A model generated the notes under the pieces. The model made no database searches, was not told the origin of the DNA, and saw only the letters and a list, made by a program, of their open reading frames with translations. 64,000 nucleotides of DNA, from contig NZ_VTWH01000002.1 in the NCBI RefSeq assembly GCF_008369445.1, positions 186,001 to 250,000 of the forward strand, in the 5' to 3' direction. Made by a program: the position numbers and the translations under genes. The stretch comes from Aureimonas fodinaquatilis (GTDB lineage: Bacteria > Pseudomonadota > Alphaproteobacteria > Rhizobiales > Rhizobiaceae). The stretch's first letter is position 1, and every line of letters starts with the position of its first letter. This document shows, one piece after another, positions 28,703-47,246 of the stretch.

Positions 28703-29929
28703 ATGAGCTTTCTCGATGTGCTTCCCAGGTTGGATTTTCTGACAATTTACGTCATGATCGCTGTGATCGGCATCGCTCTCAGTGCGGTTTGGGGGGCTGT
28801 CTGCTGGCAGCATCGCAGCTTCATTTCAGCGCGCGTCTGGTTTGTCGGTTGCATAGCGCAGGCTGCCGGCGGTCTTTTGTTGCCGTTTCAAATCGGCAAC
28901 CTTGCCGCCCCGGTCGCCTCACTTGCATTTGGCCTTATCGTGTTCGGGTTCTGGTTGCTTTGGTCCGGAGTGAGAGGCTTTTACGGTCGTGATCTGCGTA
29001 TAAAGACTGCCGTTGGCGCAAGCGCACTTTGTTCACTTCTGACCGTAATTCTCTTCGACAACAAAGAGCATCTCGCAATTTTATATGCAGCCGGGCAAAT
29101 CGTTCCGCAGGTTGCTCTGTTGCGGCTTTTTCTGAAAACAAGAGGCCGCTCAATCGGTGCACTTATCGGTTGTGCAGGTCTGTTCATCGGCCTCACCAGC
29201 CACGTCATCGTGGTGGTGATGAACATCGTTATTCTTGCAGGGTCAGGTCCGGTGCCCGATTGGTTTGCGCTTGCGGCTCTGACAATGGTCGGCGCTGTCA
29301 TGTGTGGCCTTCTGCTTAATTTTGGCCTGGCAGTGATGACCATCGACCATTTGCGGGAAGAGCTGGCCATTCTGGCCAATACGGAATCGTTGACCGGCCT
29401 TTTGAACCGCCGGGGGTTTGAGGATAATGCCAAGGGCGCGCTGATGCTCGCTGCTGGTCCTGCATCTATGGTGTTGTGTGACCTCGACCACTTTAAATCT
29501 GTTAATGATCGCTTCGGTCATACGGCCGGAGACACGGTTCTGCGAGAGTTCAGCGAGATTTTGCGATCGCATCTGCGCTCTGTTGACATCTGCGGGCGTG
29601 TCGGCGGCGAAGAGTTTGCTATTTTGTTCCCAGGGTTGAGTTTGTCTGAAGCGCGAAAGCGCGTGGGTGATTTGCGCAAACGCCTGAACCAGACGGAGTT
29701 TAAATCCAGAGGTGAGGTTTTCTCAGTTACAGCCAGCTTTGGCATTTCTGAAAGACTGAAGGGTGAGCCTTACGAAGTGTTGTTCAGCCGCACAGACCGT
29801 CTTTTATATGCCGCGAAGGACAGCGGGCGAGACCGGATTTTCAGCGGTATAGCTGGATTGTCGCAAACCGTGAATGGCCCAGAGGATGAGATTCGAACCC
29901 ACGATACCGTCACCAGTTTGCTCCCTTAA
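28703..29929 (+). CDS. Membrane-bound diguanylate cyclase (GGDEF protein)
   Basis: A 408-residue enzyme making cyclic di-GMP from two GTP. Residues about 15-215 form six or seven membrane helices, probably a sensor; the GGDEF domain occupies about 222-385, with the active-site loop GGEEF at 301-305 and an intact inhibitory I-site RSVD at 292-295, exactly five residues before it. Therefore it should be active and feedback inhibited. The last about 17 residues (from GPEDE) are encoded by tRNA-Ser-like sequence, so the native C-terminus was replaced or extended by an old integration event. Confidence 0.88.
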   Translation: MSFLDVLPRLDFLTIYVMIAVIGIALSAVWGAVCWQHRSFISARVWFVGCIAQAAGGLLLPFQIGNLAAPVASLAFGLIVFGFWLLWSGVRGFYGRDLRIKTAVGASALCSLLTVILFDNKEHLAILYAAGQIVPQVALLRLFLKTRGRSIGALIGCAGLFIGLTSHVIVVVMNIVILAGSGPVPDWFALAALTMVGAVMCGLLLNFGLAVMTIDHLREELAILANTESLTGLLNRRGFEDNAKGALMLAAGPASMVLCDLDHFKSVNDRFGHTAGDTVLREFSEILRSHLRSVDICGRVGGEEFAILFPGLSLSEARKRVGDLRKRLNQTEFKSRGEVFSVTASFGISERLKGEPYEVLFSRTDRLLYAAKDSGRDRIFSGIAGLSQTVNGPEDEIRTHDTVTSLLP

Positions 29930-29938
29930 TAGGGGGAG
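29875..29938 (-). repeat. Degenerate tRNA-Ser 3' fragment (old attachment site)
   Basis: Reading leftwards this matches the 3' part of a tRNA-Ser gene. Against the better copy at 31492-31554 I count eight mismatches and one 1-bp insertion over 63 positions; the T-arm core GATTCGAACCCACGATACCG is identical. It directly abuts the remains of an integrase gene in the same relative position and orientation as at 31.5 kb. It is therefore best read as the attachment site of an earlier element. Confidence 0.85.
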
Positions 29939-29951
29939 AAGATCGTTATTT

Positions 29952-30300
29952 CTCAGGATCACCGCGCTTCATTCTGCCCATTCTCGAAAATCCCACCCGA
30001 AATTCACGGCATGAAATGCAAATGCCGGGGTTCCAAGTTTGGTGCATCTCTGCCACTCGCGAGATTCCATTCTCCTTCACCTTATGGAATTTGCAAATCC
30101 TTGGTTTGAGCGTGGAACCAAGTTGCCTAAGTGTGGCGACAGACGTGAGGCGCTATCAGACCTGCATCCAAGCCGGCTGCCGTTACTGCTAAACCAAACG
30201 GCTTAGCTCTATGGCCAGTGCCTTCGCTTTGCCTCGAAAAGCCCGGGCCATCGACGCCTATTGTTGGCAAAGTTGACATGACGGTGATTACGCGCGGAGC
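29952..30300 (-). pseudogene. Decayed C-terminal part of a tyrosine integrase
   Basis: Translated leftwards, 30300-30130 gives PRVITVMSTLPTIGVDGPGF and later PHVCRHT, matching residues 221-284 of the intact integrase at 31571-32611. A stop follows, and the homology continues at the DNA level through a disrupted stretch to the end of the gene, including GGGTGGGATTTTCGAGAA. The codon equivalent to catalytic Tyr313 reads TGC (Cys). The first two thirds are missing. It is non-functional. Confidence 0.88.
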
Positions 30301-30312
30301 AACCATTTCGGC

Positions 30313-30639
30313 ATGCTCTCCTGGCGGGAGGGAACTGGCGCAGATTACGATCTGCAAATTGCTGAAGATTTGCTGCCCAACTGGTTCAGCTCTCCGGTGG
30401 ATATACGACGGACCAAATATGCTTATGCGCATATCGGCCAGCTGCACAGCGATCAGGGTCGCAAATCTGGCCTGATGTACGTAGCGCTACATGAGACGTC
30501 AGCCGCGCCAGATGCTTACGCCGCAGGCCGAGGTTGGTTATCGGGCAGATCCGCAACGGTGATTCCATACAGCATGGGTGCAGGAGAGGATTATCGCTCA
30601 ACCCTGCAGCCAGAAATGTTGCTGCGAATGATAACGTGA
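30313..30639 (+). CDS. Hypothetical protein or fragment
   Basis: A 108-residue reading frame immediately beyond the broken edge of the integrase remnant. The composition is protein-like (ADYDLQIAEDLLPNWFSSP, YAYAHIGQLHSDQGRKSG), with no membrane segment. I do not recognise it. Its position suggests it may be the surviving C-terminal part of a gene truncated when the old element decayed; the ATG at 30313 has a plausible but weak upstream context. Confidence 0.35.
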   Translation: MLSWREGTGADYDLQIAEDLLPNWFSSPVDIRRTKYAYAHIGQLHSDQGRKSGLMYVALHETSAAPDAYAAGRGWLSGRSATVIPYSMGAGEDYRSTLQPEMLLRMIT

Positions 30640-30674: not shown

Positions 30675-30959
30675 CTACCCGGCCTGGCGATTGCGAGCGT
30701 CTTCCATCTTCTGCTTGAACGCTTCGGTTTTGCGTTTCTTCTCCATCTTGCGATAGAGCCACATGCCATCTGCTTGACGTCCGCAGCTTGGGCAGAAATG
30801 GGCGCGAGACGTTTGGCTCATCAAAAACCATGGAATTAGCCAGAGCCCGAATGTGAAAACTGTTAGCAATAAATGGAGTATGTGGTTGGGGGTGTTGCGT
30901 TCCGCGAGAACAATCTTGTCCTCATGCCTGCAATACATTTGCTCTTTTCTAACGCCCAC
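30675..30959 (-). CDS. Small membrane protein with zinc-ribbon-like cysteines
   Basis: A 94-residue protein. A central hydrophobic hairpin (HILHLLLTVFTFGLWLIPWFL) is flanked by Cys9 (in MYCRHEDK) and a CPSCG pair after the helix, then a basic, helical tail (KMEKKRKTEAFKQKMEDARN). This layout resembles small proteins with a zinc ribbon at a membrane. The function is unknown. It lies in the scar region between the integrase remnant and the intact prophage, so it could be cargo of the lost element. Confidence 0.55.
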   Translation of the reverse strand: MGVRKEQMYCRHEDKIVLAERNTPNHILHLLLTVFTFGLWLIPWFLMSQTSRAHFCPSCGRQADGMWLYRKMEKKRKTEAFKQKMEDARNRQAG

Positions 30960-31491
30960 TGAATGCTCCTACAATTATTGGCAGGAAAGAAACATCATAT
31001 AGATGAATTGTCTAGTGGTCGCGTGCTTATGAGTGCCAATGATATGAAATTTAAACATTCATAAGAATGTGAGGTTTAAATTGAAAGGATGTATGGTTGT
31101 CGCGTTGGTACTTAGGCAGACGAAATCACGGTCTTCGGCTTTAAAACTGGCGCGCATGTTAGCTACCGCCCGTCGTGTGAGGAGACGGACACATCCGGGT
31201 TCTATTTCCGCAGTGAACCTCCTAGGCCTCACCCAGCCTTCACTACCTATGTTCTATGGGCGCACGACGCCACGGCAGTGACAATTATGAGTGTCAAAGA
31301 CTAATCTCATTGGACAAAGCGAAGGCTTTCCAAGCGCTTCCAGGAAAGCGCCCAATTAAATTTAAATGGGCGCTGTTTTTAGCTTTTACAAATTTCCCCA
31401 CCTCAGTGCGCATGTTCCTGCAAATTCTGCTTCGCTCGGCACTCTTAATACAGAGGTAGTGGTGGGGGAAAGCCTGCTTAAAGGCCTGAAA
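30960..31491. other. 532-bp stretch without a convincing gene
   Basis: AT-richer sequence between the small membrane protein and the prophage edge. Short reading frames exist but show no ribosome binding site or family features. The only structure noticed is the hairpin at 31347-31380. Confidence 0.5.
31347..31380 (+). terminator. Terminator-like hairpin
   Basis: AGCGCCCA (31347-31354) pairs with TGGGCGCT (31367-31374) and is followed by GTTTTT. It would stop rightward transcription just before the prophage boundary. No gene ending here was identified. Confidence 0.55.
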
Positions 31492-31554
31492 TGGCGGAGA
31501 GGATGGGATTCGAACCCACGATACCGTCACCGGTATACTCCCTTAGCAGGGGAG
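31492..31554 (-). repeat. Prophage left attachment site: 3' portion of tRNA-Ser(GCU)
   Basis: Read leftwards: a complete anticodon arm (stem CTCCC/GGGAG, seven-base loop CTGCTAA with anticodon GCT), variable arm, T-arm (GGTTCGAATCC) and acceptor 3' strand ending TCTCCGCCA. The 5' half of a tRNA is absent: upstream sequence is phage DNA. This is the pattern left when a phage integrates into the 3' part of tRNA-Ser, with the restored full tRNA expected at the other end of the prophage, beyond the window. Confidence 0.88.
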
Positions 31555-31570
31555 AGAAAATCCCTATTTC

Positions 31571-32611
31571 TCAGGCTCTCAGGGCCTCATTCCCCCAATT
31601 CTCCCCCAGTTCTCGAAAATCCCATCCAGAATTCAACGCGTCCAATGCAAGGGACGGTGTGCCAAGCTTGGTGTATCGCTGCCACTCTCCCGACTTCCAG
31701 CCGCCTTCATCTTGCAACCTTCGAACATCCTTGGTCTGAGCGTAAAACCATGTCGCCCAGGTGTGACGGCAGACGTGCGGGGTTATCGTGTTCTCGTCCA
31801 GCCCCGCATCCTTCACAGCCTGTGCAAATGGTTTGGCTATCTGACCACCACCAGCATTTCGCATTGAAAAACCCATCCCATCGTGACGCCTGAAAAGAGG
31901 CCCATCCACACCGACTGTGGGCAGCGTGGATAGCGCGGCGATAACGCGGGGAATTAACGAAATCCTGCGCTCCTCGCCATTCTTTGTGTTTCGAAGAATT
32001 GCGTACTTGTGGTCGAGTGATACGTCACGAGAATCCAGAGAAAGTGCTTCACCGGTTCGGCAGCCCTGACCGAAGAGCATTGTCACGAGCGCAGGAAGAA
32101 AAGCGTTCGCGTTTTTGCTGATCGAAATAATGATGGCATCGGCTTGAGCTGGGGTAGTAAACACTGTTCTTTTCCTATCGCCAGTTGGAGATTTGATGCG
32201 AGGGGCGACACATAGGTCATCCTCTGCGGCGCAGTTCAGAATGGCCTTCACAGGCGTGTATAATTGCCGTCGGATTGTCGCTGGTGACCTACCGGGGTAG
32301 AGCGCATTTGCTGCTCGGCGCATTTCTGCGTTCGTCACTTCCGATACCAGTTTGTCAGCAAAATGCCGTCGAACAGGTTTCAGAAAACGCGCGTTCGGAT
32401 GTTGCCTCTCATACAGATCCAGCGCCTGAATGAACGTTAACTCGGCTTGTTGATCATACGTATCGGCGCATAACTCCGCGATGATGCCGGGGAGCGAGGC
32501 TTTAGCGTCGGCAAGCTTTTCGCATTTTGTGCTGATTTCAACCCTGCGACCGCCGACCGTGCCGCGGGCATACCAGTACGGGCTTTTCGGACGTTTTTTA
32601 AGTTCGAGCAT
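31571..32611 (-). CDS. int: Tyrosine-type site-specific integrase
   Basis: A 346-residue phage integrase. An N-terminal arm-binding and SAM-like core-binding region (about 1-130) is followed by the catalytic domain with Arg185 (QGCRTGEAL), His279 and Arg282 (HVCRHT), Trp305 (EGGW, in the place of the second His/Trp) and nucleophile Tyr313 (QRYTKLGT). It ends 16 bases before the tRNA-Ser attachment repeat, as expected for an enzyme acting there. The N-terminal coding region overlaps the excisionase-like gene by about 175 bases in another frame. Confidence 0.94.
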   Translation of the reverse strand: MLELKKRPKSPYWYARGTVGGRRVEISTKCEKLADAKASLPGIIAELCADTYDQQAELTFIQALDLYERQHPNARFLKPVRRHFADKLVSEVTNAEMRRAANALYPGRSPATIRRQLYTPVKAILNCAAEDDLCVAPRIKSPTGDRKRTVFTTPAQADAIIISISKNANAFLPALVTMLFGQGCRTGEALSLDSRDVSLDHKYAILRNTKNGEERRISLIPRVIAALSTLPTVGVDGPLFRRHDGMGFSMRNAGGGQIAKPFAQAVKDAGLDENTITPHVCRHTWATWFYAQTKDVRRLQDEGGWKSGEWQRYTKLGTPSLALDALNSGWDFRELGENWGNEALRA

Positions 32612-32793
32612 TTTGGCTCCATTATTCTGTCGAGGTCTTCCGGAAGAAAAAACATCTCTCTCCCAACCTCTCTGTACGCCCCGATCTCCCTTGCTTTTCG
32701 CCTCAAAGCGCGCTCGGAAATACGGACACCCGCCATCAACAGCTTTTCCACAGCAGCGGCAGGAGAAATTACGCGTTCAAGCTGCGCGCTCAT
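32437..32793 (-). CDS. Excisionase-like helix-turn-helix protein
   Basis: A 118-residue DNA-binding protein. Residues about 12-45 (PAAAVEKLLMAGVRISERAL, then REVGREMFFLPEDLDRIM) resemble the winged HTH of MerR/excisionase-type proteins. The gene sits directly upstream of the integrase in the same operon, so a recombination directionality role is likely. The second half, basic and low-complexity, overlaps the integrase start; homologues may be shorter. ATG 32793 follows GGAGGGTGAGC. Confidence 0.65.
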   Translation of the reverse strand: MSAQLERVISPAAAVEKLLMAGVRISERALRRKAREIGAYREVGREMFFLPEDLDRIMEPKCSNLKNVRKARTGMPAARSAVAGLKSAQNAKSLPTLKPRSPASSRSYAPIRMINKPS

Positions 32794-32795
32794 GC

Positions 32796-32918
32796 TCACC
32801 CTCCTTTCCCTCGCATTGCCAGTGCGATCACCGAAGCCGCATGCCCAATGCACAAAATCAACATAACTGTTCCGGCAAACGTCCAGAACGATGAGAAGAT
32901 GAATTCAAGGATGGTCAT
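32796..32918 (-). CDS. Tiny membrane protein (40 aa)
   Basis: MTILEFIFSSFWTFAGTVML opens a 40-residue protein that is almost entirely one membrane helix, ending in MRGKGG. ATG 32918 has a strong GGAGGCC ribosome binding site and overlaps the stop of the preceding small gene by ATGA; its own stop is two bases before the excisionase start. Unknown function. Confidence 0.6.
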   Translation of the reverse strand: MTILEFIFSSFWTFAGTVMLILCIGHAASVIALAMRGKGG

Positions 32919-33043
32919 CGTTTGGCCTCCACGTCACGCCAAGTCGGCATTGCCCTTTGAAGCCGCGATCTATGTGGCTCAGGGCAAACTGCCCATCCAA
33001 TGCGCGATATGAGCTTGAACAGTTTCCAGCGGATTGCGGTCAT
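32915..33043 (-). CDS. Small basic protein (42 aa)
   Basis: A 42-residue, arginine- and tryptophan-rich protein (MTAIRWKLFKLISRIGWAVC...) with an amphipathic N-terminus. It overlaps both neighbours by ATGA, which supports translation. A GGACGGGG ribosome binding site precedes it inside the upstream gene. Unknown function. Confidence 0.5.
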   Translation of the reverse strand: MTAIRWKLFKLISRIGWAVCPEPHRSRLQRAMPTWRDVEAKR

Positions 33044-33804
33044 TCCCCGTCCTCCTGCTTGCGCAGGGCAGCTATGGCGACCTGACGTATTCGCTCATAG
33101 TTTGCCTGACCGGGGCCGCTTCCCAGATTGCCTTCAGCAATATTTCGCAGGGCAATCCTTATCCGTTCAGCATCGACCGGGGCGGGGTGTCCAAAGTCCT
33201 TGAGCGCAAAATCACGTTCTGCCTCTTTGGCAACATCAAAGGCTTTGAGTAGCCATTGCGGTTCGGGATGCCAATCAGTGGAACCGAACCAAACGGTTAT
33301 CGGCACGATGGAGCGGGCGTCTGTTTCGCCGCGCCAGTTGGTATAAGTCAGCGTCACCGCCTGCCCGGTATCGGCTGCGGGCTCCGCATCCATCTTCGGG
33401 TCACTCCAACCAAAATCGTAATCAAGCGCTCCCATAATAGAGTGACACCGCGCTTCCCAAGACCTGTGTGTCTCGGACATGGCCTGCACAGCATTTTCGA
33501 TACGGTCTTTCAGAGTAGCTTCATTGTCGGTATCGGCAGCGGGCTCATCGCTATCAGCGTGGGATCGAATGCGTTCGGCGATCTGAATTGATGCCGTTTC
33601 CAGAAGACCGGAATAGTCGCCCCAATCCTCGAATGTTAATGCCACCTTTGCCGCTTCCTCGAAAGCATCACGGCGGGCAGTCGATAGGGCGTTCAGAACA
33701 GTGCGGATATCCTCGCGGTCCTCAAACGTCGTGGCATGGAAGAAGGACGGATTGCGCAGTAGTAACACCACCCGCTCAACGGCTTGTTTCAGTTCAACCG
33801 TCAT
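33040..33804 (-). CDS. Phage protein with WYL-like segment
   Basis: A 254-residue cytosolic protein. Residues about 140-205 (TLTYTNWRGETDARSIVPIT, then WHPEPQWLLKAFDVAKEAERDFAL) form a small beta-rich module that recurs in rhizobial phage proteins and resembles WYL-type ligand-binding domains. The flanks are helical and charged, with an acidic linker DSDEPAADTDNEA. Both ends overlap neighbours by ATGA. Exact role unknown; a nucleic-acid or nucleotide sensor is conceivable. Confidence 0.65.
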   Translation of the reverse strand: MTVELKQAVERVVLLLRNPSFFHATTFEDREDIRTVLNALSTARRDAFEEAAKVALTFEDWGDYSGLLETASIQIAERIRSHADSDEPAADTDNEATLKDRIENAVQAMSETHRSWEARCHSIMGALDYDFGWSDPKMDAEPAADTGQAVTLTYTNWRGETDARSIVPITVWFGSTDWHPEPQWLLKAFDVAKEAERDFALKDFGHPAPVDAERIRIALRNIAEGNLGSGPGQANYERIRQVAIAALRKQEDGE

Positions 33805-34007
33805 TGTGATTTCCTCGCGACGTGCCGAGCCTTGCGCGCAGCCTTGGACTTGTCCCGGCGCTTGCGTTTGGCTGTCTTCATAGGTTTTGGGGTGTCTCGG
33901 ATGGTTTGGTGCTGGCTAAACCGACCAGTGGCATGCGGTTTGAGCCCCAGAGCCATAAAGACGGCTAAATCTACGTCTTCCTCTATCCTCAGAGGTTCAT
34001 CCGTCAT
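33801..34007 (-). CDS. Small phage protein with basic tail
   Basis: A 68-residue protein: acidic N-terminal half (MTDEPLRIEEDVDLAVFMAL) and a strongly basic C-terminal half rich in Lys/Arg (KRKRRDKSKAARKARH), suggesting nucleic-acid contact. It is coupled to both neighbours by short overlaps. Family unknown. Confidence 0.55.
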   Translation of the reverse strand: MTDEPLRIEEDVDLAVFMALGLKPHATGRFSQHQTIRDTPKPMKTAKRKRRDKSKAARKARHVARKSQ

Positions 34008-34284
34008 GGTCGGTTCCTTTCAGAAGGGCGCGGGCTTTTAAAAATCTGTTGGCATCAACGTGGTTTCCGGGCGGATTACCGCTGATCAATGCTAGCTCTG
34101 CGGCTTCTGCAAATGGATGAAGCCCCGCCTCCAACTCTGCATTGCGGGCTTCCAGTGCTTCAATGCGGTCGGCTGCTTCGATGCGCGTGTCATATGTTGG
34201 ATCAGCCACCCAATCCCCAAAATCGCGCCGCAGCCGCTGTTTCAGGTCATCACTCACCGCCAATGGCTTTGTGTCTGTGGTCAT
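33997..34284 (-). CDS. Hypothetical phage protein, coiled-coil
   Basis: A 95-residue protein with a central heptad-like helix (RIEAADRIEALEARNAELEA) typical of small phage early proteins containing 'ADRIEALEA' stretches. ATG 34284 overlaps the upstream stop; the longer frame start at 34341 lies inside the methyltransferase-like gene and is not needed. Confidence 0.65.
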   Translation of the reverse strand: MTTDTKPLAVSDDLKQRLRRDFGDWVADPTYDTRIEAADRIEALEARNAELEAGLHPFAEAAELALISGNPPGNHVDANRFLKARALLKGTDHDG

Positions 34285-34964
34285 GCGACGTTCCTTTCCA
34301 GAAGCTCGGCTTCCTTGCACATCCGGACCCAATCGCCCCATTGCTCTGCAATTGCCTCGGCATGCCCAGGCGTGAATTTGGATCGCGCCATGCGTCGTTC
34401 CTCCGGGTCTGCGGTGGGTGCCATCTGATGAACTTCGTCGCGTGCCGTGGAACCATCCAATGTCCCCGTGGGGCCCAGCTTCGGTAGGCCACCTTTAAGC
34501 CGCCAAGCTGTTGCTTTTTTCACGTTGTCCGGGCCGTTTTCATCGTGGCCAAACCACCAAGGTTGGACGATCTGATCAGGCTTGCCGATCATGAGCTGCG
34601 CATATCCCAGCATCACCGGGTTTTCCCATGCGGCAAAGCGTACAGGGCAGTTCTGCATGTGATGCCAGAACGCCCATGCATGCCGACCCATCTCAAGCCA
34701 GCGATCCTCGTTCAGGCCACCGTTCTTGCTCATGTTCAGGTACAGATGCTTTGCGCCGGAATTGGCCAAGAATGTGCATGTGCGATGGAAGATGGCCAAA
34801 TCCCAGCCATCGCCCTCTATGTCAGACCAGTCGCCCTGATGATGAGGACCGCCGACCTTTGATGGCGAGAAATCACACGACACAGCGTAGTGTCCTCGCG
34901 CGATAAATGCATCGCGCACAACGCCGTTGTGCTCACCGCCAATAAGAACGCGCAGCCCCGTCAT
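34281..34964 (-). CDS. Phage DNA methyltransferase-like protein with altered catalytic loop
   Basis: A 227-residue protein of the phage family that resembles the SAM-binding half of cytosine methyltransferases: RVLIGGEHNGVVRDAFIARGH (first strand and glycine loop), SCDFSPSKVGGPHHQGDW, GWDLAIFHRTCTFLANSG, ENPVMLGYAQLMIG, QPWWFGHDE, WRLKGGLPKL. Relatives carry PPC in the catalytic loop; here it reads HRTC. Cysteine is kept but both prolines are gone, so activity is doubtful. ATG 34964 overlaps the upstream stop. Confidence 0.7.
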   Translation of the reverse strand: MTGLRVLIGGEHNGVVRDAFIARGHYAVSCDFSPSKVGGPHHQGDWSDIEGDGWDLAIFHRTCTFLANSGAKHLYLNMSKNGGLNEDRWLEMGRHAWAFWHHMQNCPVRFAAWENPVMLGYAQLMIGKPDQIVQPWWFGHDENGPDNVKKATAWRLKGGLPKLGPTGTLDGSTARDEVHQMAPTADPEERRMARSKFTPGHAEAIAEQWGDWVRMCKEAELLERNVA

Positions 34965-35569
34965 TTGCAGCCACATGCAGGCTTGGCTTTCGCCTTCCGC
35001 ACCTTCTTTTTCGCAGGGGCTTTCTTGACGGCAACCGGCTTCAATGACGCTTCGTAAGCGGCCAGCTCCTGATAACGCCCAGCCCGCGCAAGATCGCAGC
35101 GGACACCTTTGAGCATCAACGTGGCGTGTGCTTCCCGGATACTGCATTGTGTGTAGAGCAAGGCTCTATCATTTCCGATGGAAATAATATTTCGGACCAC
35201 CTGTCCTGACTTGTAACCCGCAGTAGGAAGTGCAAATCCGACTGCACCAAAGGGCGTTCCGAGCGATACCGCATTCGTGTCGCCATTGCCGCTGATGGAC
35301 GGCGCGACAACCGTGACGTTTTTCGACGTGACATTGACGCCTCCGTTGTTGGCCGATGCGGCAGCATTGCCTCCGGTCGCATTGGCTGTCGCATTCTGCT
35401 GCTGGGTCTGTCCTTGGGTTTGAGCCTGCGCCTGGTGCTGTGACTGCTGGTTCGTGCTGAACCATTTCTGCACCAGTGTTTGCTTGGGCTGCTCGACAGG
35501 TTTGGATGGTGTCTCTGCCAGAGCAGGGGATGCCAGCACGATGCCGGTAAGGATGATCGCGAGCTTCAT
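34961..35569 (-). CDS. Exported Gln/Ala/Asn-rich protein
   Basis: A 202-residue protein with a clear signal peptide (MKLAIILTGIVLASPALA, cleavage before ETPSK). Residues about 42-75 are low complexity, dominated by Gln, Ala, Asn and Thr (QSQHQAQAQTQGQTQQQNAT). A more ordered middle (GTPFGAVGFALPTAGYKSG, YTQCSIREAHATLMLKGVRC) has two cysteines, and the tail is Lys/Ala-rich ending CGCK. An exported protein inside an early phage operon is unusual; it may act in the periplasm, for instance on the envelope or on other phages. Confidence 0.7.
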   Translation of the reverse strand: MKLAIILTGIVLASPALAETPSKPVEQPKQTLVQKWFSTNQQSQHQAQAQTQGQTQQQNATANATGGNAAASANNGGVNVTSKNVTVVAPSISGNGDTNAVSLGTPFGAVGFALPTAGYKSGQVVRNIISIGNDRALLYTQCSIREAHATLMLKGVRCDLARAGRYQELAAYEASLKPVAVKKAPAKKKVRKAKAKPACGCK

Positions 35570-35901
35570 GACCGGCCCTCAGCTTTTGCGATGGCGGCAA
35601 GCATCTGCTCTTGCAGCCCGTCGAATTGCGAATATTGGGTGCCGGAAAAATCCATGACGCTATCAATGCGCTTGAGGACTTCCAGCAGATCAGGCGCTGC
35701 GGCAATCAGCTGGGCGTTTGCAACAGCTTCTCTCTGGCTTGTTGCATTATCCCACTCGTATGGCCATTGCCCGCCTGTCCGTACGACTGTTTTGTCGGTT
35801 TCGTTGACGGCGGATATTGACAAAGGCCAGCCAGTCCATTGACCGCCACTATCGTCAATGAACACGGACCAAGGTCCAGGCGTGTGCTTTGCCTGTGTCA
35901 T
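35566..35901 (-). CDS. Phage protein with KHTPGPW N-terminus (copy 1)
   Basis: A 111-residue protein starting MTQAKHTPGPW, a hallmark of a widespread but uncharacterised phage family, followed by ANAQLIAAAPDLLEVLK and a closing helix AAIAKAEGR. A paralogue with the same start and end lies at 39504-39818. Overlaps both neighbours by four bases. Confidence 0.75.
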   Translation of the reverse strand: MTQAKHTPGPWSVFIDDSGGQWTGWPLSISAVNETDKTVVRTGGQWPYEWDNATSQREAVANAQLIAAAPDLLEVLKRIDSVMDFSGTQYSQFDGLQEQMLAAIAKAEGRS

Positions 35902-36008
35902 GGCTTTGCTCCTGTTCGAGCTGGACGGTTGTTGAAGCCAGCCAGACCGCAGAGAAATGCGACGGCGGCGAATTCGAGCGGGATGAAAAGGAGGCATGCG
36001 GTAATCAT
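35898..36008 (-). CDS. Tiny membrane protein (36 aa)
   Basis: MITACLLFIPLEFAAVAFLC begins a 36-residue protein with a single hydrophobic helix and a basic tail (NNRPARTGAKP). Coupled by ATGA overlaps at both ends. Unknown function. Confidence 0.55.
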   Translation of the reverse strand: MITACLLFIPLEFAAVAFLCGLAGFNNRPARTGAKP

Positions 36009-36388
36009 GGTTGCGTCTCCCTTGATGTCTTCACGTAGCGGCCACGGCCCCAGTCAAATTTGAAGCCTTCCGGCTTGCTGAGGGCAGATTTCTTGTCTGT
36101 TTGGAACCCGTCGAATTTCGCTTCGAGGCGCTTGGCGCGGGCAATGTCGGCAACGTCTTTCTTCGTTTTGGGCGCATGGCAGCAGGCTTGACCAAGCAGC
36201 TTGCCGTCGTCCGGCTTGAGCGGCTTGCTCTTGTCTCTATGCATGGCATCCGGAATCGTGTGGTCGATCTGGTACGGTTTCTTTTTGAGCACGAGGCCAC
36301 AGCCTTCGCAGACGACAAAGCCGTCGGCATTCCTTGCTCGATCCACGATCTTGGCCCGAACTTCTCTGGTGAACTCGCGGCGGGTCAT
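36005..36388 (-). CDS. HNH endonuclease-like phage protein
   Basis: A 127-residue protein. CEGCG near residue 28 and the QIDHTIPDAM stretch resemble the zinc knuckle and the core histidine of HNH nucleases; KLLGQACCHAPKTKKDVADIA completes the betabeta-alpha-like region. It probably nicks or cuts DNA, as HNH proteins near recombination genes often do. ATG 36388 overlaps the upstream stop; a second, unrelated HNH gene is at 45479. Confidence 0.72.
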   Translation of the reverse strand: MTRREFTREVRAKIVDRARNADGFVVCEGCGLVLKKKPYQIDHTIPDAMHRDKSKPLKPDDGKLLGQACCHAPKTKKDVADIARAKRLEAKFDGFQTDKKSALSKPEGFKFDWGRGRYVKTSRETQP

Positions 36389-36561
36389 TGCTTCACCGCC
36401 AGTTCGCGGCATGACCGGCGAAGATCCTGTTCCCATCCGCTCCAGAATATCGCTGCGCGTAGATCCTCGTGCGTGTGCGCTTGGATAATGCTGTGCAAGA
36501 TGCCGCGATGAGGTGATGTCCGGGGCAGGGCGTCACGACGATGCTTGATGGCCGTAATCAT
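36385..36561 (-). CDS. Hypothetical small phage protein (58 aa)
   Basis: MITAIKHRRDALPRTSPHRG opens a 58-residue basic protein with a helical C-terminus (WEQDLRRSCRELAVKQ). No family recognised. ATGA overlaps at both ends support expression. Confidence 0.55.
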   Translation of the reverse strand: MITAIKHRRDALPRTSPHRGILHSIIQAHTHEDLRAAIFWSGWEQDLRRSCRELAVKQ

Positions 36562-36995
36562 CGTGCGCGCTCCTGATCTTCGCTGAAGATCACGCCTTGC
36601 TCTGAGAACACCCGATAGATGCCTTCAATGTAAGCCGTCTTCTGCGCTGTGTTCATGAGGCGCGTTACCGGAAAATCGATAGGTTCTGCCATCATCTCAA
36701 GCTTGCGCTCGTAGGGCATTGGTTTGATCAAGCGGTCGTATTTTTCGGCGAACAGTTCGCTTCCTGCCCGCAGGATCGGCACGCCGATTGTCAGCTTGCA
36801 GAGAGCACGCACTTCCTCATGGGTTTGATCCGTCTGAGCGGCTATCTCGTTGAGCAATCGGCGCTGAAGCCTGTTCTGCTCAACGCTGCGGCGCTTGCCT
36901 TTGACGACCTCGGCTGTGAATGGCAGCGGTCGGCTGGCAATGAGCGCGGTTAGAGCATCGCGCTGGATTTCGTTGGTTATAACTCGTGTGGTCAT
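36558..36995 (-). CDS. NinB-like recombination protein
   Basis: A 145-residue protein resembling lambda NinB, an Orf-type recombination mediator: KGKRRSVEQNRLQRRLLNEIA at the family's usual position, then LCKLTIGVPILRAGSELFAEKYD and a C-terminal TAYIEGIYRVFSEQGV. It is adjacent to the ERF annealing protein, consistent with a phage homologous recombination module. GTG 36998 is an alternative start one codon upstream. Confidence 0.65.
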   Translation of the reverse strand: MTTRVITNEIQRDALTALIASRPLPFTAEVVKGKRRSVEQNRLQRRLLNEIAAQTDQTHEEVRALCKLTIGVPILRAGSELFAEKYDRLIKPMPYERKLEMMAEPIDFPVTRLMNTAQKTAYIEGIYRVFSEQGVIFSEDQERAR

Positions 36996-37630
36996 CACCC
37001 GGCCTCCAGCGTGCTTGCCTTGGGCAGGGATTTCCTCAGGTCACGAGCCGTGTTCAGAACACGGTTACGGCTCACCTCATCGAGGTCTTCGATCTCAGAT
37101 TTTTGCTTCATCCACCATTTCTCGAGTGCCAATTGATCCGGCGAGATTTTCATCGCCTCAATCATGGTGTCGGCAATTACAGCATTGCGGTCATTGACCC
37201 GGGCCGTGGGTTTTGGCCGCTGCTGATTACGGTCGATAGCGCTCTCCGCATCATCATCCAGCGGTGGCAGTCCTAGGGCGGCCATCAGGGAATAGCGCAG
37301 GCCGTAGGTCATCGCTGATCCCGCACCCTGTGGATCACGCTTGGACATTGGCACATGCATGGTGGACTGCATCCACTCACCGCTTTCGGCGTGCGTCAGG
37401 CGTGTCGTTACCTCAATGCAGCCATCGACCACGATGCCAGGTGCTTGATTGAAGACTATGCCGTTTTCCTGAAGGTGTGGGCGCGCAGCCTCCACCACGG
37501 CCTCAAGCGAGGCATAGCTGTTCTTAAAATGCGGGTTTTTGCTGTCTTTATGGACGCCCTCGACTTTGCCTTGAAAGGCCAGCAGGGAAGTCATCAGTTT
37601 ATTGATTGTTGGGCTTGTGACGATGCTCAT
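36995..37630 (-). CDS. erf: ERF family single-strand annealing protein
   Basis: A 211-residue ssDNA annealing protein of the P22 Erf family. Conserved features: GVHKDSKNPHFKNSYASLE, GIVFNQAPG, TRLTHAESGEWMQST and the family signature DPQGAGSAMTYGLRYSLMAALGL. The C-terminal 60 residues are helical and variable, as in relatives. It probably promotes phage genome circularisation and recombination, aided by the NinB-like protein downstream. Confidence 0.9.
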   Translation of the reverse strand: MSIVTSPTINKLMTSLLAFQGKVEGVHKDSKNPHFKNSYASLEAVVEAARPHLQENGIVFNQAPGIVVDGCIEVTTRLTHAESGEWMQSTMHVPMSKRDPQGAGSAMTYGLRYSLMAALGLPPLDDDAESAIDRNQQRPKPTARVNDRNAVIADTMIEAMKISPDQLALEKWWMKQKSEIEDLDEVSRNRVLNTARDLRKSLPKASTLEAG

Positions 37631-38379
37631 CAGACAACACTCCGATGCTCATGCACTTCGACACCAGGAATGGAGCGCGTCCCCGCATCCACCTTGCGCT
37701 GGGCCAAAGTGCGGAAAAACTGCGACAGTTCTTCGTGATGGTTTTTCCAGCAGAAGCGGGCGAACTCCGTCATATCGACAACTTCAGCGACATAGCTGGT
37801 ACGCAGAGATGTGGCGCGGCTTCCACCCTTGGCCTGGGCCTTGTCGTTCGCGGCTCGACGCGCAGCGGTTTCCGCCTGCTGTGCATCACGCAGGAGGCGT
37901 TCGGCTTCCTCACGTTGTGCCAGATCAGCTTCACGGCTGGCGCGAATAGCTGCCTCAGCTTCTTCGCGCTTTCGATCAGCCACAATGCGCGCAACCTCAG
38001 CGATGGCCCGCTTTTCATCATCCAGCTTCTTCAGATATGGAGCGAGCGCCTTTTTGCAGGCGTCTAGAGCCATCGGGCCTTTGCCGGTGACGCTTTTCGT
38101 CTCGCCGATCAGCTCATTGTAACGAGCCTGAATTTTGCTCTTGGCATCATCCAGCGGCTTCACTTCTTCCTTGCGACGGTTATCCGCTGCCTTGATGGCT
38201 TTGCGGATTTCGTCCATGAGCTTTGACACCTGCTCAGCAACGGCATGCTCAACGATGTCGTCGCCGTCCAGCCAGTGCTTGGCTTCCTCGTACAGCGCTT
38301 CAATCTCGTCACGGGAAATCTCAAAAGGTGTTGCCTCTGGAGGATTGTTGTGATGCCGCATATCAATGGCTTCCGACAT
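37630..38379 (-). CDS. Helical phage protein paired with ERF
   Basis: A 249-residue protein, mostly long charged helices (about 60-185, KLDDEKRAIAEVARIVADRK, EEAERLLRDAQQAETAARRA), likely a coiled coil. The end (RTLAQRKVDAGTRSIPGVEV) recurs in phage proteins preceding ERF or RecT. It probably supports recombination or inhibits host nucleases; this is inference from position. ATG 38379 is chosen for its typical MSEAIDMRHHNNPPE start. Confidence 0.65.
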   Translation of the reverse strand: MSEAIDMRHHNNPPEATPFEISRDEIEALYEEAKHWLDGDDIVEHAVAEQVSKLMDEIRKAIKAADNRRKEEVKPLDDAKSKIQARYNELIGETKSVTGKGPMALDACKKALAPYLKKLDDEKRAIAEVARIVADRKREEAEAAIRASREADLAQREEAERLLRDAQQAETAARRAANDKAQAKGGSRATSLRTSYVAEVVDMTEFARFCWKNHHEELSQFFRTLAQRKVDAGTRSIPGVEVHEHRSVV

Positions 38380-38551
38380 GACGGGCCTCCATTTCATCCA
38401 TGAATTGCTTGATGAGTTGACGCGCTCTGGCATGGCCGTGTTCTGCAATCAGGTCGGCTATCGCAGCACGAGCGGTAAACTCGGTGTATCCGGCGTAATC
38501 AGGAGCGACGATTGTCGGCTCTGGCATGATGGTGCTGGCTCGATGCGTCAT
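38363..38551 (-). CDS. Hypothetical small phage protein (62 aa)
   Basis: A 62-residue, mildly acidic helical protein (AAIADLIAEHGHARARQLIK). It overlaps the next gene by 17 bases and the previous by four. No family recognised. Confidence 0.55.
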   Translation of the reverse strand: MTHRASTIMPEPTIVAPDYAGYTEFTARAAIADLIAEHGHARARQLIKQFMDEMEARHVGSH

Positions 38552-38946
38552 TCCGCAGCCTCCAGCAGATCGTAGCCGAGGCGCATGTCACGCTCTTGGT
38601 CTGGGTCTTCCCAGTTGCGGGCTTCCTCTTGAAGCTTGTCCATGATCCAGTCGGACGTGGCAGGCTTCAGGCAGTGCTCCCAGAGACAGTCATCCAAGTG
38701 GTGCTCAAGATTGACCGAATGGCCGTTGCGGGCGTTCTCGATCCTTTGCAGTGAAACAACCCGTTGCTTGCCGGATGCCTTGCTCGTTTCAATGAAGGCT
38801 TCTCCAATGTCGAAGTTGCCTGCTTCCTCGAGGTAGAATGTCACCGTCGCATTGAAATAGGCGTCGATTTCATAGCCATTGAGGATGATAGGGATATCCT
38901 CGACATACAGCTCAACATGGGGTTGATTTATCCAAGAGGGGATCAT
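38548..38946 (-). CDS. Hypothetical phage protein (132 aa)
   Basis: A 132-residue acidic protein starting MIPSWINQPHVELYVEDIPI, with mixed strand/helix pattern and EEARNWEDPDQERDMRLGYD at the end. The longer upstream frame is discarded because the region before ATG 38946 encodes a small membrane protein in another frame. Function unknown. Confidence 0.6.
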   Translation of the reverse strand: MIPSWINQPHVELYVEDIPIILNGYEIDAYFNATVTFYLEEAGNFDIGEAFIETSKASGKQRVVSLQRIENARNGHSVNLEHHLDDCLWEHCLKPATSDWIMDKLQEEARNWEDPDQERDMRLGYDLLEAAE

Positions 38947-39092
38947 TTCTGCACCTCTGCGTAGGATGAATTGAAGGATTGACGGGACTCCAGGACGTAA
39001 TCGCTGCCGAGCTGTGCGAAGACGTATCCCGCACCTATGAACAGAGCGATTGTCAGGAGTTCCAAGATTGGTTTTGCGTATTCGCGGATCAT
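38943..39092 (-). CDS. Small membrane protein (49 aa)
   Basis: MIREYAKPILELLTIALFIG begins a 49-residue protein with one membrane helix and a polar C-terminus. It overlaps neighbours by ATGA on both sides. Unknown function. Confidence 0.6.
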   Translation of the reverse strand: MIREYAKPILELLTIALFIGAGYVFAQLGSDYVLESRQSFNSSYAEVQK

Positions 39093-39385
39093 GGCTTGAC
39101 CTCGCGAGCTGCAATCATGGCGTCAGCTACGCGGTAGGCTGCGCCTGCCGCCTCTGCCGGATAGTGCTGAAGTCCGAGTGATTTGCTATTGCCCAGAAAA
39201 CCACTCAAAGCCTGACCCGCGAACTGATCGCGCAATGACCCGACGCTTTGCAGGCGGTGGACGATCTCAGCATTCATGCTGCGGCCATTACGCTCTGCTG
39301 CTGATCTGATTTCCTCGCGCAGTCCGTCTGGTAGGCGTATTTGAAAGCGCTCTGCCTTTTCACTTGGATATTGTTCACGAGCCAT
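39089..39385 (-). CDS. Arc-type ribbon-helix-helix DNA-binding protein
   Basis: A 98-residue putative regulator. QIRLPDGLREEIRSAAERNGR and SMNAEIVHRLQ form the strand-helix-helix of Arc/MetJ repressors. The remaining 45 residues are a helical extension. ATG 39385 follows GGAGGGCGATGTG. It sits near the start of the leftward early operon and may modulate it. Confidence 0.82.
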   Translation of the reverse strand: MAREQYPSEKAERFQIRLPDGLREEIRSAAERNGRSMNAEIVHRLQSVGSLRDQFAGQALSGFLGNSKSLGLQHYPAEAAGAAYRVADAMIAAREVKP

Positions 39386-39507
39386 CACATCGCCCTCCAG
39401 TAAGCAGCAATGATCTCGCCAATGGGAGAGATTGCAGTGAGGTAGGAAAGGGTGGCTGTCAGGATGGAAGCCATGATCAGGCTGGGATGATTGGCTGTGC
39501 GGCTCAT
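39385..39507 (-). CDS. Tiny membrane protein (40 aa)
   Basis: MSRTANHPSLIMASILTATL starts a 40-residue protein with a hydrophobic central helix (IMASILTATLSYLTAISPIG). TGATG and ATGA overlaps link it to its neighbours. Unknown function. Confidence 0.55.
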   Translation of the reverse strand: MSRTANHPSLIMASILTATLSYLTAISPIGEIIAAYWRAM

Positions 39508-39818
39508 GACCGGCCCTCCGCTTTTGCGATGGCGGCGCGGGCTTCGTCGGCCACAATCTGAAACGCAGCCAGCCTGTCTTTTCCTGGCTCCATGCTCGCC
39601 GCATGAGCCAACCTTATTGCCACGGTCAGCAGATCAGGAGCTGCGGCGATCAGGGGGGAATTCTCAATATTGCATTCCGCAATCAGAGCCTTATCGCCTC
39701 CATATTTCCCATCTCCGAGAGGGACTTTTGCTGATATGGCGGCATCCCAGCAGCAGCCGTGCTCAACCATTTCTCCAATAATTATCCATGGCCCGGGCGT
39801 GTGCTTCACCTCAGACAT
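39504..39818 (-). CDS. Phage protein with KHTPGPW N-terminus (copy 2)
   Basis: A 104-residue paralogue of the 35566 gene: MSEVKHTPGPW at the start, SPLIAAAPDLLTVAIRL in the middle and AAIAKAEGR at the end. The middle part has diverged. Function unknown. Confidence 0.75.
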   Translation of the reverse strand: MSEVKHTPGPWIIIGEMVEHGCCWDAAISAKVPLGDGKYGGDKALIAECNIENSPLIAAAPDLLTVAIRLAHAASMEPGKDRLAAFQIVADEARAAIAKAEGRS

Positions 39819-39948
39819 CGTAGAGCCCCATTAAAACGAGGATCATGATAAGCGCGATGTAGACGGCGTATTTCACCGCCTGAATGATGCCATCAACGCG
39901 CCGGTTATTGTCGGCTTGCGAGGGGCCTATGATCTTCATGGGCTGCAT
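39811..39948 (-). CDS. Small membrane protein, first gene of the leftward operon (45 aa)
   Basis: MQPMKIIGPSQADNNRRVDG leads into a membrane helix (YAVYIALIMILVLMGLYDV). GGAGATGACCC precedes ATG 39948. It is the promoter-proximal gene after the operator region at 39983. Confidence 0.6.
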   Translation of the reverse strand: MQPMKIIGPSQADNNRRVDGIIQAVKYAVYIALIMILVLMGLYDV

Positions 39949-39982
39949 GGGTCATCTCCTGTGTTGGAGACATACAATCACT

Positions 39983-40012
39983 GCTTGCATAAAAGTGCAA
40001 GCGAAACTTGCA
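39983..40012. promoter_or_regulatory. Operator region of the leftward early promoter
   Basis: GCTTGCATAAAAGTGCAAGC (39983-40002) is an inverted repeat with perfect 7-bp arms, and a further CTTGCA half-site lies at 40007-40012. The same TGCAAG element recurs in the repressor/cro region at 41022-41070, so these are probable binding sites of the S24 repressor. Confidence 0.65.
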
Positions 40013-40093
40013 TAAAAAATGAAGATGGCAGACTCGACTCTCGCCGCTGACGAATCAATAATGAGAACATAAAGGGAACGGAGCAGGGCAGAT

Positions 40094-40387
40094 ATGACGG
40101 GATACAGCCCGCCAGTGTGGCATTTAAAGGCTTTGGCAGTGGAGTGCAGTGATTGTGGTCGAGAGAAGTGGCTGAATACTCACGATCTCGAAAGGGTGTG
40201 CAGGCGTCAGAGCGGGCCGATGCGAGATTTTGTCGCAAAGCTGCGGTGCCAAGCCTGCAAAAGCGAGGGCAAGCCGGGAGACGCTGTATCAGTTCAAGGG
40301 GTTTTTCGAGATGCTCGAGAAATCAAAAGCCGAGAAGCTCTTTCGCTGGGATTACGCGGTATACGCGATCTATGTCGGCGAGCTTAA
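40094..40387 (+). CDS. Hypothetical protein with two CxxC pairs
   Basis: A 97-residue protein with CSDCG near residue 18 and CQACKSEG near residue 52, which could bind one zinc. It is transcribed rightwards from the same intergenic region as the leftward operon, and its last 65 bases overlap the convergent repressor gene. The zinc pattern supports a real gene; the convergent overlap is a caution. Confidence 0.5.
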   Translation: MTGYSPPVWHLKALAVECSDCGREKWLNTHDLERVCRRQSGPMRDFVAKLRCQACKSEGKPGDAVSVQGVFRDAREIKSREALSLGLRGIRDLCRRA

Positions 40388-41006
40388 ATTCAACCTCCTT
40401 TGCGGGGTTGAATTGCCGACAGATCAGAAGCCCGGACTGACGACCAATAAGCCGCTTGATGAAACCTTTGCCGTTTTCATGTTCCGCTTCGGGCTTCAAT
40501 TTTATCACGATGTCATCGCCGGGGATTGGCTCCCGCCCACCGCAATAGATTAAGTCGCCCGGCTCGAAGCGCGGCTCCATGCTGGTTCCTAGAACATGCA
40601 GGGCAAAAACGTCTTTGACGTGGGCAATACCGACAGGCCTCCTTACGTAGTCCACAACATCGCTGTAGGTCGTAAAGTCTGAATCGCCACCGCCATAGCT
40701 GACGCCCTGAACGGGAACGTCCTTCGGGCCTCGATCTGGCATTGGTGCAGGATCTGTGACCTGCTGAACCTCGTTCAAGGCTTGCTCTATGTCAACGAAA
40801 CGCAATTCGCCAGAGAGGGCGGAAACAGGGTCTATTCCAAGAAAACCAGCCAACTTGCGTAAGTTGGTCATGCTTATTTCGTTGTCGCCGCGTTCCCACT
40901 GGCCCACGGCCTGGTAAGTCACAGCGAGGGTTGCCGCAACTTCCTTCTGGGTCTTCTTGCGCTGCTTCCTAGCAGTCCGGATCACATTTCCGAGCGTTCT
41001 GTTCAT
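40323..41006 (-). CDS. CI-like repressor: XRE helix-turn-helix plus S24 peptidase domain
   Basis: A 227-residue lysogeny repressor. The N-terminal XRE domain (about 5-60, RTARKQRKKTQKEVAATLAV, TYQAVGQWERG) binds DNA; the C-terminal S24/LexA-like domain has the Ser142 (GTSMEPRF) and Lys184 (GFIKRLIG) dyad. SOS-triggered self-cleavage is expected from the family, though an Ala-Gly cleavage pair is not obvious. ATG 41006 is chosen over 41069. It faces a Cro-like gene and shares operators with the leftward operon. Confidence 0.9.
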   Translation of the reverse strand: MNRTLGNVIRTARKQRKKTQKEVAATLAVTYQAVGQWERGDNEISMTNLRKLAGFLGIDPVSALSGELRFVDIEQALNEVQQVTDPAPMPDRGPKDVPVQGVSYGGGDSDFTTYSDVVDYVRRPVGIAHVKDVFALHVLGTSMEPRFEPGDLIYCGGREPIPGDDIVIKLKPEAEHENGKGFIKRLIGRQSGLLICRQFNPAKEVEFKLADIDRVYRVIPAKELLGF

Positions 41007-41021
41007 ACTGTTGTAGTGCGA

Positions 41022-41070
41022 TGCAAGTTGATCGCCGTCCACAAAAGACTGGCTTGCATTATTAAGCAAG
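41022..41070. promoter_or_regulatory. Operator region between repressor and cro
   Basis: TGCAAG at 41022-41027 and an imperfect palindrome CTTGC (41053-41057) / GCAAG (41066-41070) match the half-sites of the 39983 operator. They lie in the 81-bp gap between the divergent repressor and Cro-like genes. Confidence 0.6.
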
Positions 41071-41087
41071 TCATGCTTGTATTGGGC

Positions 41088-41339
41088 ATGAGCGATAAAA
41101 ACTCCATGTTATCGGCCTTGCAGGCCGCAATTGTCAGCGCTGGAGGGGCGGTGTCTCTCGGAGCGCGGCTTGGCATAACTTATCAGGCTGTGAGCCAGTG
41201 GAAGGTGTGCCCGCCTCTTCGCGTTCTGGATGTCGAGAGGGCCAGTGGCGTTTCTCGCCACGATCTTAGGCCAGACCTTTATCCTCGTCGCAGCCGTCAT
41301 CGTGCTCGCCGCCCTCTATCTGAAGGCGCGCCAGCATGA
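41088..41339 (+). CDS. Cro/YdaS-like regulator
   Basis: An 83-residue helix-turn-helix protein of the YdaS/Cro type: GGAVSLGARLGITYQAVSQW is the HTH, and SRHDLRPDLYP is the usual family end. It is divergent from the S24 repressor and first in the rightward early operon, so it should oppose repressor synthesis. Its final about 20 residues run beyond the family's usual end into arginine-rich sequence and overlap another open frame. Confidence 0.82.
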   Translation: MSDKNSMLSALQAAIVSAGGAVSLGARLGITYQAVSQWKVCPPLRVLDVERASGVSRHDLRPDLYPRRSRHRARRPLSEGAPA

Positions 41340-41388
41340 GCACGTTCCAGCCCCTTCGCTCCAGAGATCAGGTCATCAAGTACCTTGA
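41230..41388 (+). CDS. Possible nested small membrane protein (52 aa)
   Basis: In a different frame from cro and the next gene, ATG 41230 opens a 52-residue frame with a convincing membrane helix (ILGQTFILVAAVIVLAALYL) and a polar tail. Similar tiny membrane proteins occur elsewhere in this prophage. No strong ribosome binding site and complete overlap with neighbours make it uncertain. Confidence 0.3.
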   Translation: MSRGPVAFLATILGQTFILVAAVIVLAALYLKARQHEHVPAPSLQRSGHQVP

Positions 41389-41704: not shown

Positions 41705-41865
41705 CACCCTCTGTCGCCCTTCGCCTTTGCCGAGATATGGGACGAGCGCCTTTCGTGATCATCACCAAAGAAGGCTTTCCCATCGCTCATATCCCGCGTC
41801 CAGCCAAGGATGGATTGTCGCTGGTTAAGGCTGCGCGACTTCTGCGTGTGGAGGATGCGCGATGA
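41701..41865 (+). CDS. Hypothetical small phage protein (54 aa)
   Basis: MTPSVALRLCRDMGRAPFVI starts a 54-residue basic protein ending LLRVEDAR. Overlaps both neighbours by ATGA. Unknown function. Confidence 0.55.
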   Translation: MTPSVALRLCRDMGRAPFVIITKEGFPIAHIPRPAKDGLSLVKAARLLRVEDAR

Positions 41866-44778: not shown

Positions 44779-44784
44779 ATCCCA

Positions 44785-47236: not shown

Positions 47237-47246
47237 ATTGAACACC

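What the first reader, a model, noticed from the sequence alone, without database searches (positions are those of the whole stretch)
29875..30300. Scar of an earlier phage in the same tRNA-Ser site, next to the living prophage
A degraded tRNA-Ser 3' fragment followed by the last third of an integrase (catalytic Tyr codon changed to Cys, stops, missing N-terminus) is arranged exactly like the intact attachment site and integrase 1.6 kb to the right. Two related elements used the same site at different times; the older one has almost vanished. The 1.6 kb between may still hold its cargo (30313 and 30675 genes).
Basis: seen in the sequence. Interest (0 to 1): 0.7.

Follow-up and report, generated by a model that had tools for sequence, protein, structure and literature searches.

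The report
Old prophage scar beside newer prophage
Two related viruses once inserted one after the other into the same bacterial tRNA gene; the older has decayed to a 1.6-kb remnant and the newer is still complete, which is a clear but ordinary case of a well-known process.

Summary
Window 29873-30157 is 75% identical over 300 aligned columns to the attachment site and integrase 3' end at 31490-31787 (E 3e-53); without the tRNA part the match still gives E 8e-31, and integrase codons can be traced to 30297. The interpretation needs one correction. The "intact" tRNA-Ser at 31496-31580 is not the host gene but a second displaced 3' half fused to phage sequence. The real 90-nt tRNA-Ser(GCT) lies outside the window, at the equivalent of 77773-77862, at the far end of the 46.3-kb prophage. 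The order is: host, old tRNA fragment + integrase remnant + remainder of 1.6 kb, new tRNA fragment + intact integrase + prophage, intact tRNA. This is expected if the newer phage entered the restored tRNA and pushed the older one outwards. The last ~90 bp of the 1.6 kb match the newer prophage's right arm (77%, E 6e-19). The 30313 ORF is a doubly deleted phage exonuclease; the LITAF-like ORF at 30675 is the only possible cargo gene found. Tandem arrays at one tRNA gene are well known, so interest is low. No relative with an empty site was found.

The parts
28703..29929 (+). Host diguanylate cyclase (GGDEF) ORF, 408 aa, whose last 17 or so codons lie in the old tRNA fragment; the same length results if it is joined to the true tRNA
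   Evidence: PF00990 E 4e-35, profile 2-161 of 161; ORF; empty-site join
29873..29935 (-). Old displaced 3' half of tRNA-Ser(GCT) (tRNA part 29875-29935): host-side junction of the older element, mutated also in the anticodon
   Evidence: 87% over 63 bp to the true tRNA, E 1e-16; 8 mismatches, all in the tRNA part
29972..30297 (-). Integrase remnant, residues about 221-337, frame-shifted, with stops, Tyr to Cys
   Evidence: TBLASTN joint E 2e-32; best score of 14 integrases compared is the neighbour's own
30301..30639 (+). Remnant of a phage DNA repair exonuclease (ORF 30313-30639): N-terminal part lost and an internal stretch of about 140 residues lost
   Evidence: phrog_704 E 3e-22, profile 316-389 of 390; matches to residues 169 to about 204 and 343-413 of the 419-aa L125 protein
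30675..30959 (-). 94-aa ORF with a LITAF-like zinc ribbon; possible surviving cargo of the older element
   Evidence: PF10601 E 2e-5, 25.2 bits against a cut-off of 23.8; phrog_34413 E 6e-8
31389..31479 (.). Right arm of the older element, homologous to the right arm of the newer prophage
   Evidence: 77% over 114 columns incl. the first bases of the next fragment, E 6e-19
31480..31554 (-). Displaced 3' half of tRNA-Ser (31492-31554) plus 12 bp: left attachment site of the newer prophage
   Evidence: 99% over 75 bp to C2:263761-263835; identity stops in the anticodon arm
31496..31580 (-). ARAGORN call 'tRNA-Ser(gct)': a chimaera of the fragment above and the phage sequence next to the integrase, not the host gene
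   Evidence: 85 nt with an irregular acceptor and D arm against 90 nt for the true gene
31571..32611 (-). Intact tyrosine integrase ORF of the newer prophage (346 aa)
   Evidence: PF00589 E 2.5e-16; phrog_1 E 8e-35
31480..64000 (.). Newer prophage, continuing past the window to the equivalent of 77760 (46.3 kb); the intact tRNA-Ser(GCT) follows at the equivalent of 77773-77862
   Evidence: Terminase, portal, major head, tape measure, endolysin, repressor, Erf; right end

Best explanation
Tandem integration of two related temperate phages at one tRNA-Ser(GCT) gene. Each phage carries its own copy of the tRNA 3' half. Its tyrosine integrase recombines it with the host gene in the anticodon arm, so the gene is restored at one end and a 3' fragment is displaced to the other. 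The older phage entered first and left its fragment at 29875-29935. The newer phage later entered the restored gene and pushed the older one away from it, leaving a second fragment at 31492-31554. The older phage has since lost all but about 1.6 kb. One deletion fuses its integrase (cut at 30297) to the middle of its exonuclease (from 30301), another removes the exonuclease core, and point changes break the rest. Because the phage brings the tRNA 3' half, the neighbouring cyclase gene, which overlaps the tRNA on the other strand, keeps its end as well. Shown here: the two fragments, the intact tRNA at the far end, the integrase and exonuclease remnants, and the shared right arm. Inferred: the order in time, the deletions as events, and the integrase reaction itself.
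For: Three copies of the tRNA 3' half lie in the same orientation, and only the far one (C2:263773-263862) is complete at 90 nt. Homology between the newer left site and the true tRNA stops in the anticodon arm; past that point the newer site and the scar share phage sequence. Left of the scar is the diguanylate cyclase; the sequences left of the other two copies resemble each other, not it. The old element's right end matches the newer prophage's right end, 77% over 114 columns, E 6e-19. Integrase remnant joint E 2e-32 and E 8e-31 at DNA level without the tRNA part. Exonuclease remnant in two pieces beginning 3 bases after the integrase match stops. The newer prophage has head, tail, lysis, repressor and recombination genes.
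Against: No relative with an empty or singly occupied site was found: the right flank gave no TBLASTX match (E 1e-8) near the tRNA in 20 of 20 other genus genomes, where 5 of the 20 stretches were shorter than 20 kb or began at a contig end, and the best match to the cyclase in those genomes was E 3e-40 at 33% identity. So the order in time rests on geometry and decay alone. The old right arm lacks an exact copy of the CCCCCA-TT-TCCCCC motif that the newer prophage has near both ends.
Confidence: 0.92

Rival explanations
1. The scar is a decayed duplicate of the newer prophage's own left end (a segmental duplication), not a second phage.
For: Same parts in the same order: fragment, then integrase end.
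Against: The two integrase ends are only about 75% identical at DNA level and 58-66% at protein level. The exonuclease gene of the old stretch has no second match in the 82 kb of window plus L006. The old right arm is 77%, not near 100%, identical to the newer one. Decay alone could account for part of the difference.
Confidence: 0.03
2. The old remnant was a small satellite or island of about 1.6 kb, not a full phage.
For: It has both ends and is only 1.6 kb long.
Against: It joins a third of an integrase directly to the middle of a phage exonuclease that has a further internal gap; in phage contig L125 the exonuclease gene lies beside a terminase large subunit gene. This is what deletions of a larger phage leave.
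Confidence: 0.05
3. The order in time is the other way round: the outer element entered last, at the displaced fragment.
For: Geometry alone could allow insertion at a displaced fragment (inference; no call supports it).
Against: The scar's tRNA half is mutated at 8 of 61 positions, also in the anticodon, and its integrase is broken; the other fragment is identical to the intact gene over the tRNA part.
Confidence: 0.02

Closest known systems
Tandem genomic islands at one tRNA/tmRNA gene (Islander database, PMC4383910; passages read)
   Same: Each element has its own tDNA fragment; the restored gene marks one end. Islander's table lists 3919 islands, 125 tandems of two or more, and 2083 anticodon-centred sites.
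   Different: Here the outer member is a remnant with a broken integrase, so a search that asks for an integrase per member could miss it.
Phage integrases that use the anticodon stem-loop of a tRNA gene (Williams 2002, recalled; not held; in the reference list of PMC4383910)
   Same: Identity block from the anticodon arm to the 3' end; tyrosine integrase next to it.
   Different: Nothing essential. Here the integrase gene lies at the displaced fragment and not at the restored tRNA.
Prophage record IMGVR_UViG_2894822303_000001 (IMG/VR)
   Same: It appears to be this very prophage: the integrase and the 30313 ORF are 100% identical and equally spaced.
   Different: By those positions its ends correspond to window 25492 and the equivalent of 72242, so it takes in host genes and the scar on the left and stops 5.5 kb short on the right.

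Membership tests
Tandem tDNA array (Islander definition) | Each member has its own tDNA fragment in the same orientation as the intact gene | tested here: met
   Fragments at 29875-29935 and 31492-31554, intact gene at C2:263773-263862
Tandem tDNA array (Islander definition) | Each member has its own integrase gene | tested here: inconclusive
   Newer: intact, PF00589. Older: a remnant of residues about 221-337 only
Tandem tDNA array (Islander definition) | Empty or singly occupied site in a relative (my added check) | tested here: inconclusive
   One genome per species is held; the right flank is found beside this tRNA in 0 of 20 other genus genomes
Temperate tailed phage (newer element) | Integrase, repressor, terminase, portal, capsid, tail and lysis genes | tested here: met
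Temperate tailed phage (older element) | Phage-specific genes besides the integrase | tested here: met
   Exonuclease remnant phrog_704; full-length relative beside a terminase gene in L125. No structural gene was found in the 1.6 kb, of which two ORFs were scanned
Temperate phages | Excision and reintegration observed | not tested
   Needs an experiment

The most novel reading that the evidence does not exclude
This integrase family reads the near-palindromic anticodon stem (CTCCC-N7-GGGAG in Ser, Val and Thr tRNA genes) and not one tRNA as such, so its phages can swap target tRNA genes and even flip the core relative to the integrase gene, carrying the 3' half in some and the 5' half in others. 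Scars such as this one would then record repeated use of one recognition element in several arrangements.
Probability: 0.3. Interest if true: 0.4.

Novelty: new member of a known kind. Interest (0 to 1): 0.2.

Why it matters
It is a clean example of a prophage graveyard: two related phages stacked at one tRNA gene, one with a complete-looking gene set and one almost gone. It also shows three practical traps. A tRNA finder calls a tRNA at the phage's attachment fragment. A public prophage record has its ends in the wrong places. And a second remnant hides inside the record of the first. It answers no long-standing question.

Tried and rejected
Looked for the empty site. The tRNA with its right flank as DNA in 21 genus genomes including the own one: in the best match of each of the 20 others only the tRNA and at most 17 bases beside it matched. 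Both flanks by TBLASTX in the 20 other tRNA neighbourhoods: right flank 0 of 20; left flank scattered hits in 15 of 20, among them GGDEF-domain matches of 41-46% in 5. The cyclase protein in 394 family genomes: 15 others at E <= 1e-50, best 45%; no tRNA-Ser within the about 1.5-kb flanks of the 9 loci held. The right-flank esterase in 394: 5 others at E <= 1e-150; no tRNA-Ser in the flanks of the 7 further loci held, one of them a paralogue in the own genome.

The native end of the cyclase. My first empty-site join dropped two bases at the junction and gave a wrong 437-aa frame; the corrected join gives 408 aa, the same length as now, ending inside the tRNA. In 9 relatives of 32-45% identity the protein ends 5 to 35 residues after the aligned part, and the tails are not alike except in L130 and L131, so this does not confirm or deny the end. 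An attempt to print those tails gave nothing.

Integrase relatives: 9 of 296 other family genomes at E <= 1e-40, 13 loci in genome contigs, 8 in viral contigs including this prophage itself, 9 records at 28-32% identity among phages.

Tested whether core orientation follows the integrase tree: 14 rows, 6 sense, 5 antisense, 3 with no visible core. Parsimony needs 3 changes; shuffled labels do as well in 130 of 500, and one origin is not ruled out by well-supported branches. Labels are my reading. Left out as the same or near-same sequence under another locus: L069, L071, L072, L116, L117, L118, L122; L121, which resembles L119 and has no visible core, was left out too, as were the distant loci L073-L081.

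Full report
What was claimed.

BLASTN finds one block, window 29873-30157 against 31490-31787, 75% over 300 columns, E 3e-53. With the tRNA part removed the match remains 75.7% over 185 columns at E 8e-31 (119 bits), against a best of 26.5 bits in 200 mononucleotide shuffles. TBLASTN places integrase residues 221-305 at 30297-30067 and 306-337 at 30067-29972, with a frame shift between them, in-frame stops, and Cys in place of the Tyr in WQRYTKLG.

The 'intact' site is not the host tRNA. ARAGORN calls one tRNA in the window, tRNA-Ser(gct) at 31496-31580 on the minus strand. Searching the window's own genome with window 31480-31640 gives itself, a 75-bp match at 99% at C2:263761-263835, the scar, and two weaker matches, which are Ser(GGA) and Ser(CGA) genes. 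At the far match lies a regular 90-nt tRNA-Ser(GCT), C2:263773-263862, which is 77773-77862 in window numbering. Aligning the three copies shows that the site at 31480-31554 equals the true tRNA only from its 3' end to the anticodon arm, its one mismatch lying outside the tRNA part; beyond it the sequence is phage DNA next to the integrase, shared with the scar. The 85-nt call in the window is thus a chimaera with an irregular acceptor stem and D arm.

The layout. From left to right: host diguanylate cyclase; old tRNA fragment 29875-29935; integrase remnant 29972-30297; exonuclease remnant from 30301; LITAF-like ORF 30675-30959; old right arm 31389-31479; new tRNA fragment 31492-31554; intact integrase 31571-32611; the rest of a 46.3-kb prophage; intact tRNA. 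By PHROGs the new prophage has terminase, portal, head morphogenesis, major head, tail terminator, major tail, tape measure, tail fibre, endolysin, repressor, Erf, exonuclease (of another family than the remnant), resolvase and replication genes: of the 20 proteins scanned (20 of the 60 ORFs of 90 aa or more that my script listed from the integrase on, many of which will not be genes), 15 matched a family with a named function, 1 only a family of unknown function, and 4 none.

The 1.6 kb is the old element itself. Its last 90 bp match the right arm of the newer prophage, 77% over 114 columns, E 6e-19, as expected if a related phage ended there. The 30313 ORF matches phrog_704, DNA repair exonuclease, with its best stretch at profile positions 316-389 of 390. 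Against a full-length 419-aa relative in viral contig L125 it matches residues 169 to about 204 and then 343-413, so it has lost its N-terminal part and an internal stretch; the match starts at 30301, three bases after the integrase match stops. In L125 this gene lies next to a terminase large subunit gene. No second match to it was found in window plus L006, which hold the whole newer prophage. The 94-aa ORF at 30675 matches the LITAF-like zinc ribbon family just above its cut-off and may be surviving cargo; nothing tests its function.

The cyclase end. Joined to the true tRNA, the cyclase frame ends inside the tRNA gene at 408 aa, the same length as in the window (an earlier join was off by two bases and its 437 aa is void). 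The displaced fragment therefore seems to have kept the gene's native end, with a few changed residues. This is inferred, since no empty site was seen.

Relatedness of the two phages. Among 14 integrases compared with the scar, the neighbour's own scores highest, 95.5 and 48.5 bits for the two pieces; the next best, L108, has 81.3 and 38.9. The two phages were thus probably related but distinct; a duplicated end of one phage is less likely.

Age and order. The scar's tRNA fragment differs from the true gene at 8 of 61 positions, including the anticodon, while the newer fragment is identical over the tRNA part. The older element lies further from the restored gene, as expected if each newcomer enters the restored gene. 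The order in time is inferred; no strain with an empty or singly occupied site was found, and the right flank is found beside the tRNA-Ser(GCT) of 0 of 20 other genus genomes.

Where it lies. Two genus members have contigs of the same length as named records with the same integrases, Aureimonas altamirensis DSM 21988 (G014) and Aureimonas ureilytica (G017), so the window's genus in this collection is Aureimonas by inference. In those two a displaced 3' fragment of tRNA-Ser(GCT) lies elsewhere and a related integrase lies beside the intact gene, so this tRNA is used repeatedly in the genus: 2 of 20 others by this sign.

Literature. Islander (PMC4383910; passages read) describes the principle and lists 125 tandems of two or more among 3919 islands, 3760 islands with a 3' and 159 with a 5' fragment, and 2083 anticodon-centred sites. 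A search for Aureimonas together with prophage listed 10 papers, none of which by its title and abstract start treats this locus (listing only). The finding is a new member of a known kind.

Noticed in passing
Loci L106-L123, L069-L072, downstream of the integrase: Relatives of this integrase sit beside halves of Ser(GCT), Val and Thr tRNA genes, several with the anticodon stem CTCCC-N7-GGGAG, and with the tRNA in sense or antisense relative to the integrase gene; L120 and L112 show a 5' half instead (my reading and tRNA naming; tree).
   Followed up: partly
window 25492 to the equivalent of 72242: IMG/VR record IMGVR_UViG_2894822303_000001 appears to be this prophage with misplaced ends: it includes host genes and the scar on the left and lacks about 5.5 kb on the right.
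   Followed up: partly
window 31496-31580: A tRNA finder reports a tRNA-Ser at a phage attachment fragment, so an annotation of this genome could count one tRNA-Ser(GCT) too many. PMC11476347 reports Ser(GCT), Val(CAC) and Thr(GGT) tRNA genes inside Sinorhizobium phage sequences (passage read); whether some are such chimaeras was not tested.
   Followed up: partly
window 28703-29929: The diguanylate cyclase gene seems to overlap the tRNA-Ser gene on the opposite strand, with its stop inside the tRNA 3' half, so a phage that brings that half keeps both genes' ends.
   Followed up: partly
L069 11058-11600: In Aurantimonas sp. 22II-16-19i an ORF that looks like another integrase N-terminus (recalled, not searched) starts about 100 bp beyond the tRNA-Ser fragment, perhaps a second tandem array.
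   Followed up: no
L100 3988-4351: In genus member G001 weak integrase pieces in separate matches (32% and 48%, joint E 1e-5) lie about 110 bp from the intact tRNA-Ser(GCT): perhaps another scar at the same site.
   Followed up: partly
L083 13612-13651: Genus member G007 has a 40-bp 5' half of tRNA-Ser(GCT) 6.3 kb from the intact gene, perhaps a scar of an element that carries the 5' half.
   Followed up: no
L006 8734-12059: Two ORFs at the right end of the newer prophage (836 aa and 290 aa, the latter with a Cys-rich start) match no PHROG and may be cargo.
   Followed up: no
window 31592 and the equivalent of 77665: The motif CCCCCA-TT-TCCCCC occurs once near each end of the newer prophage and nowhere else in window plus L006, and similar runs flank related integrases: candidate arm-type binding sites.
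   Followed up: partly
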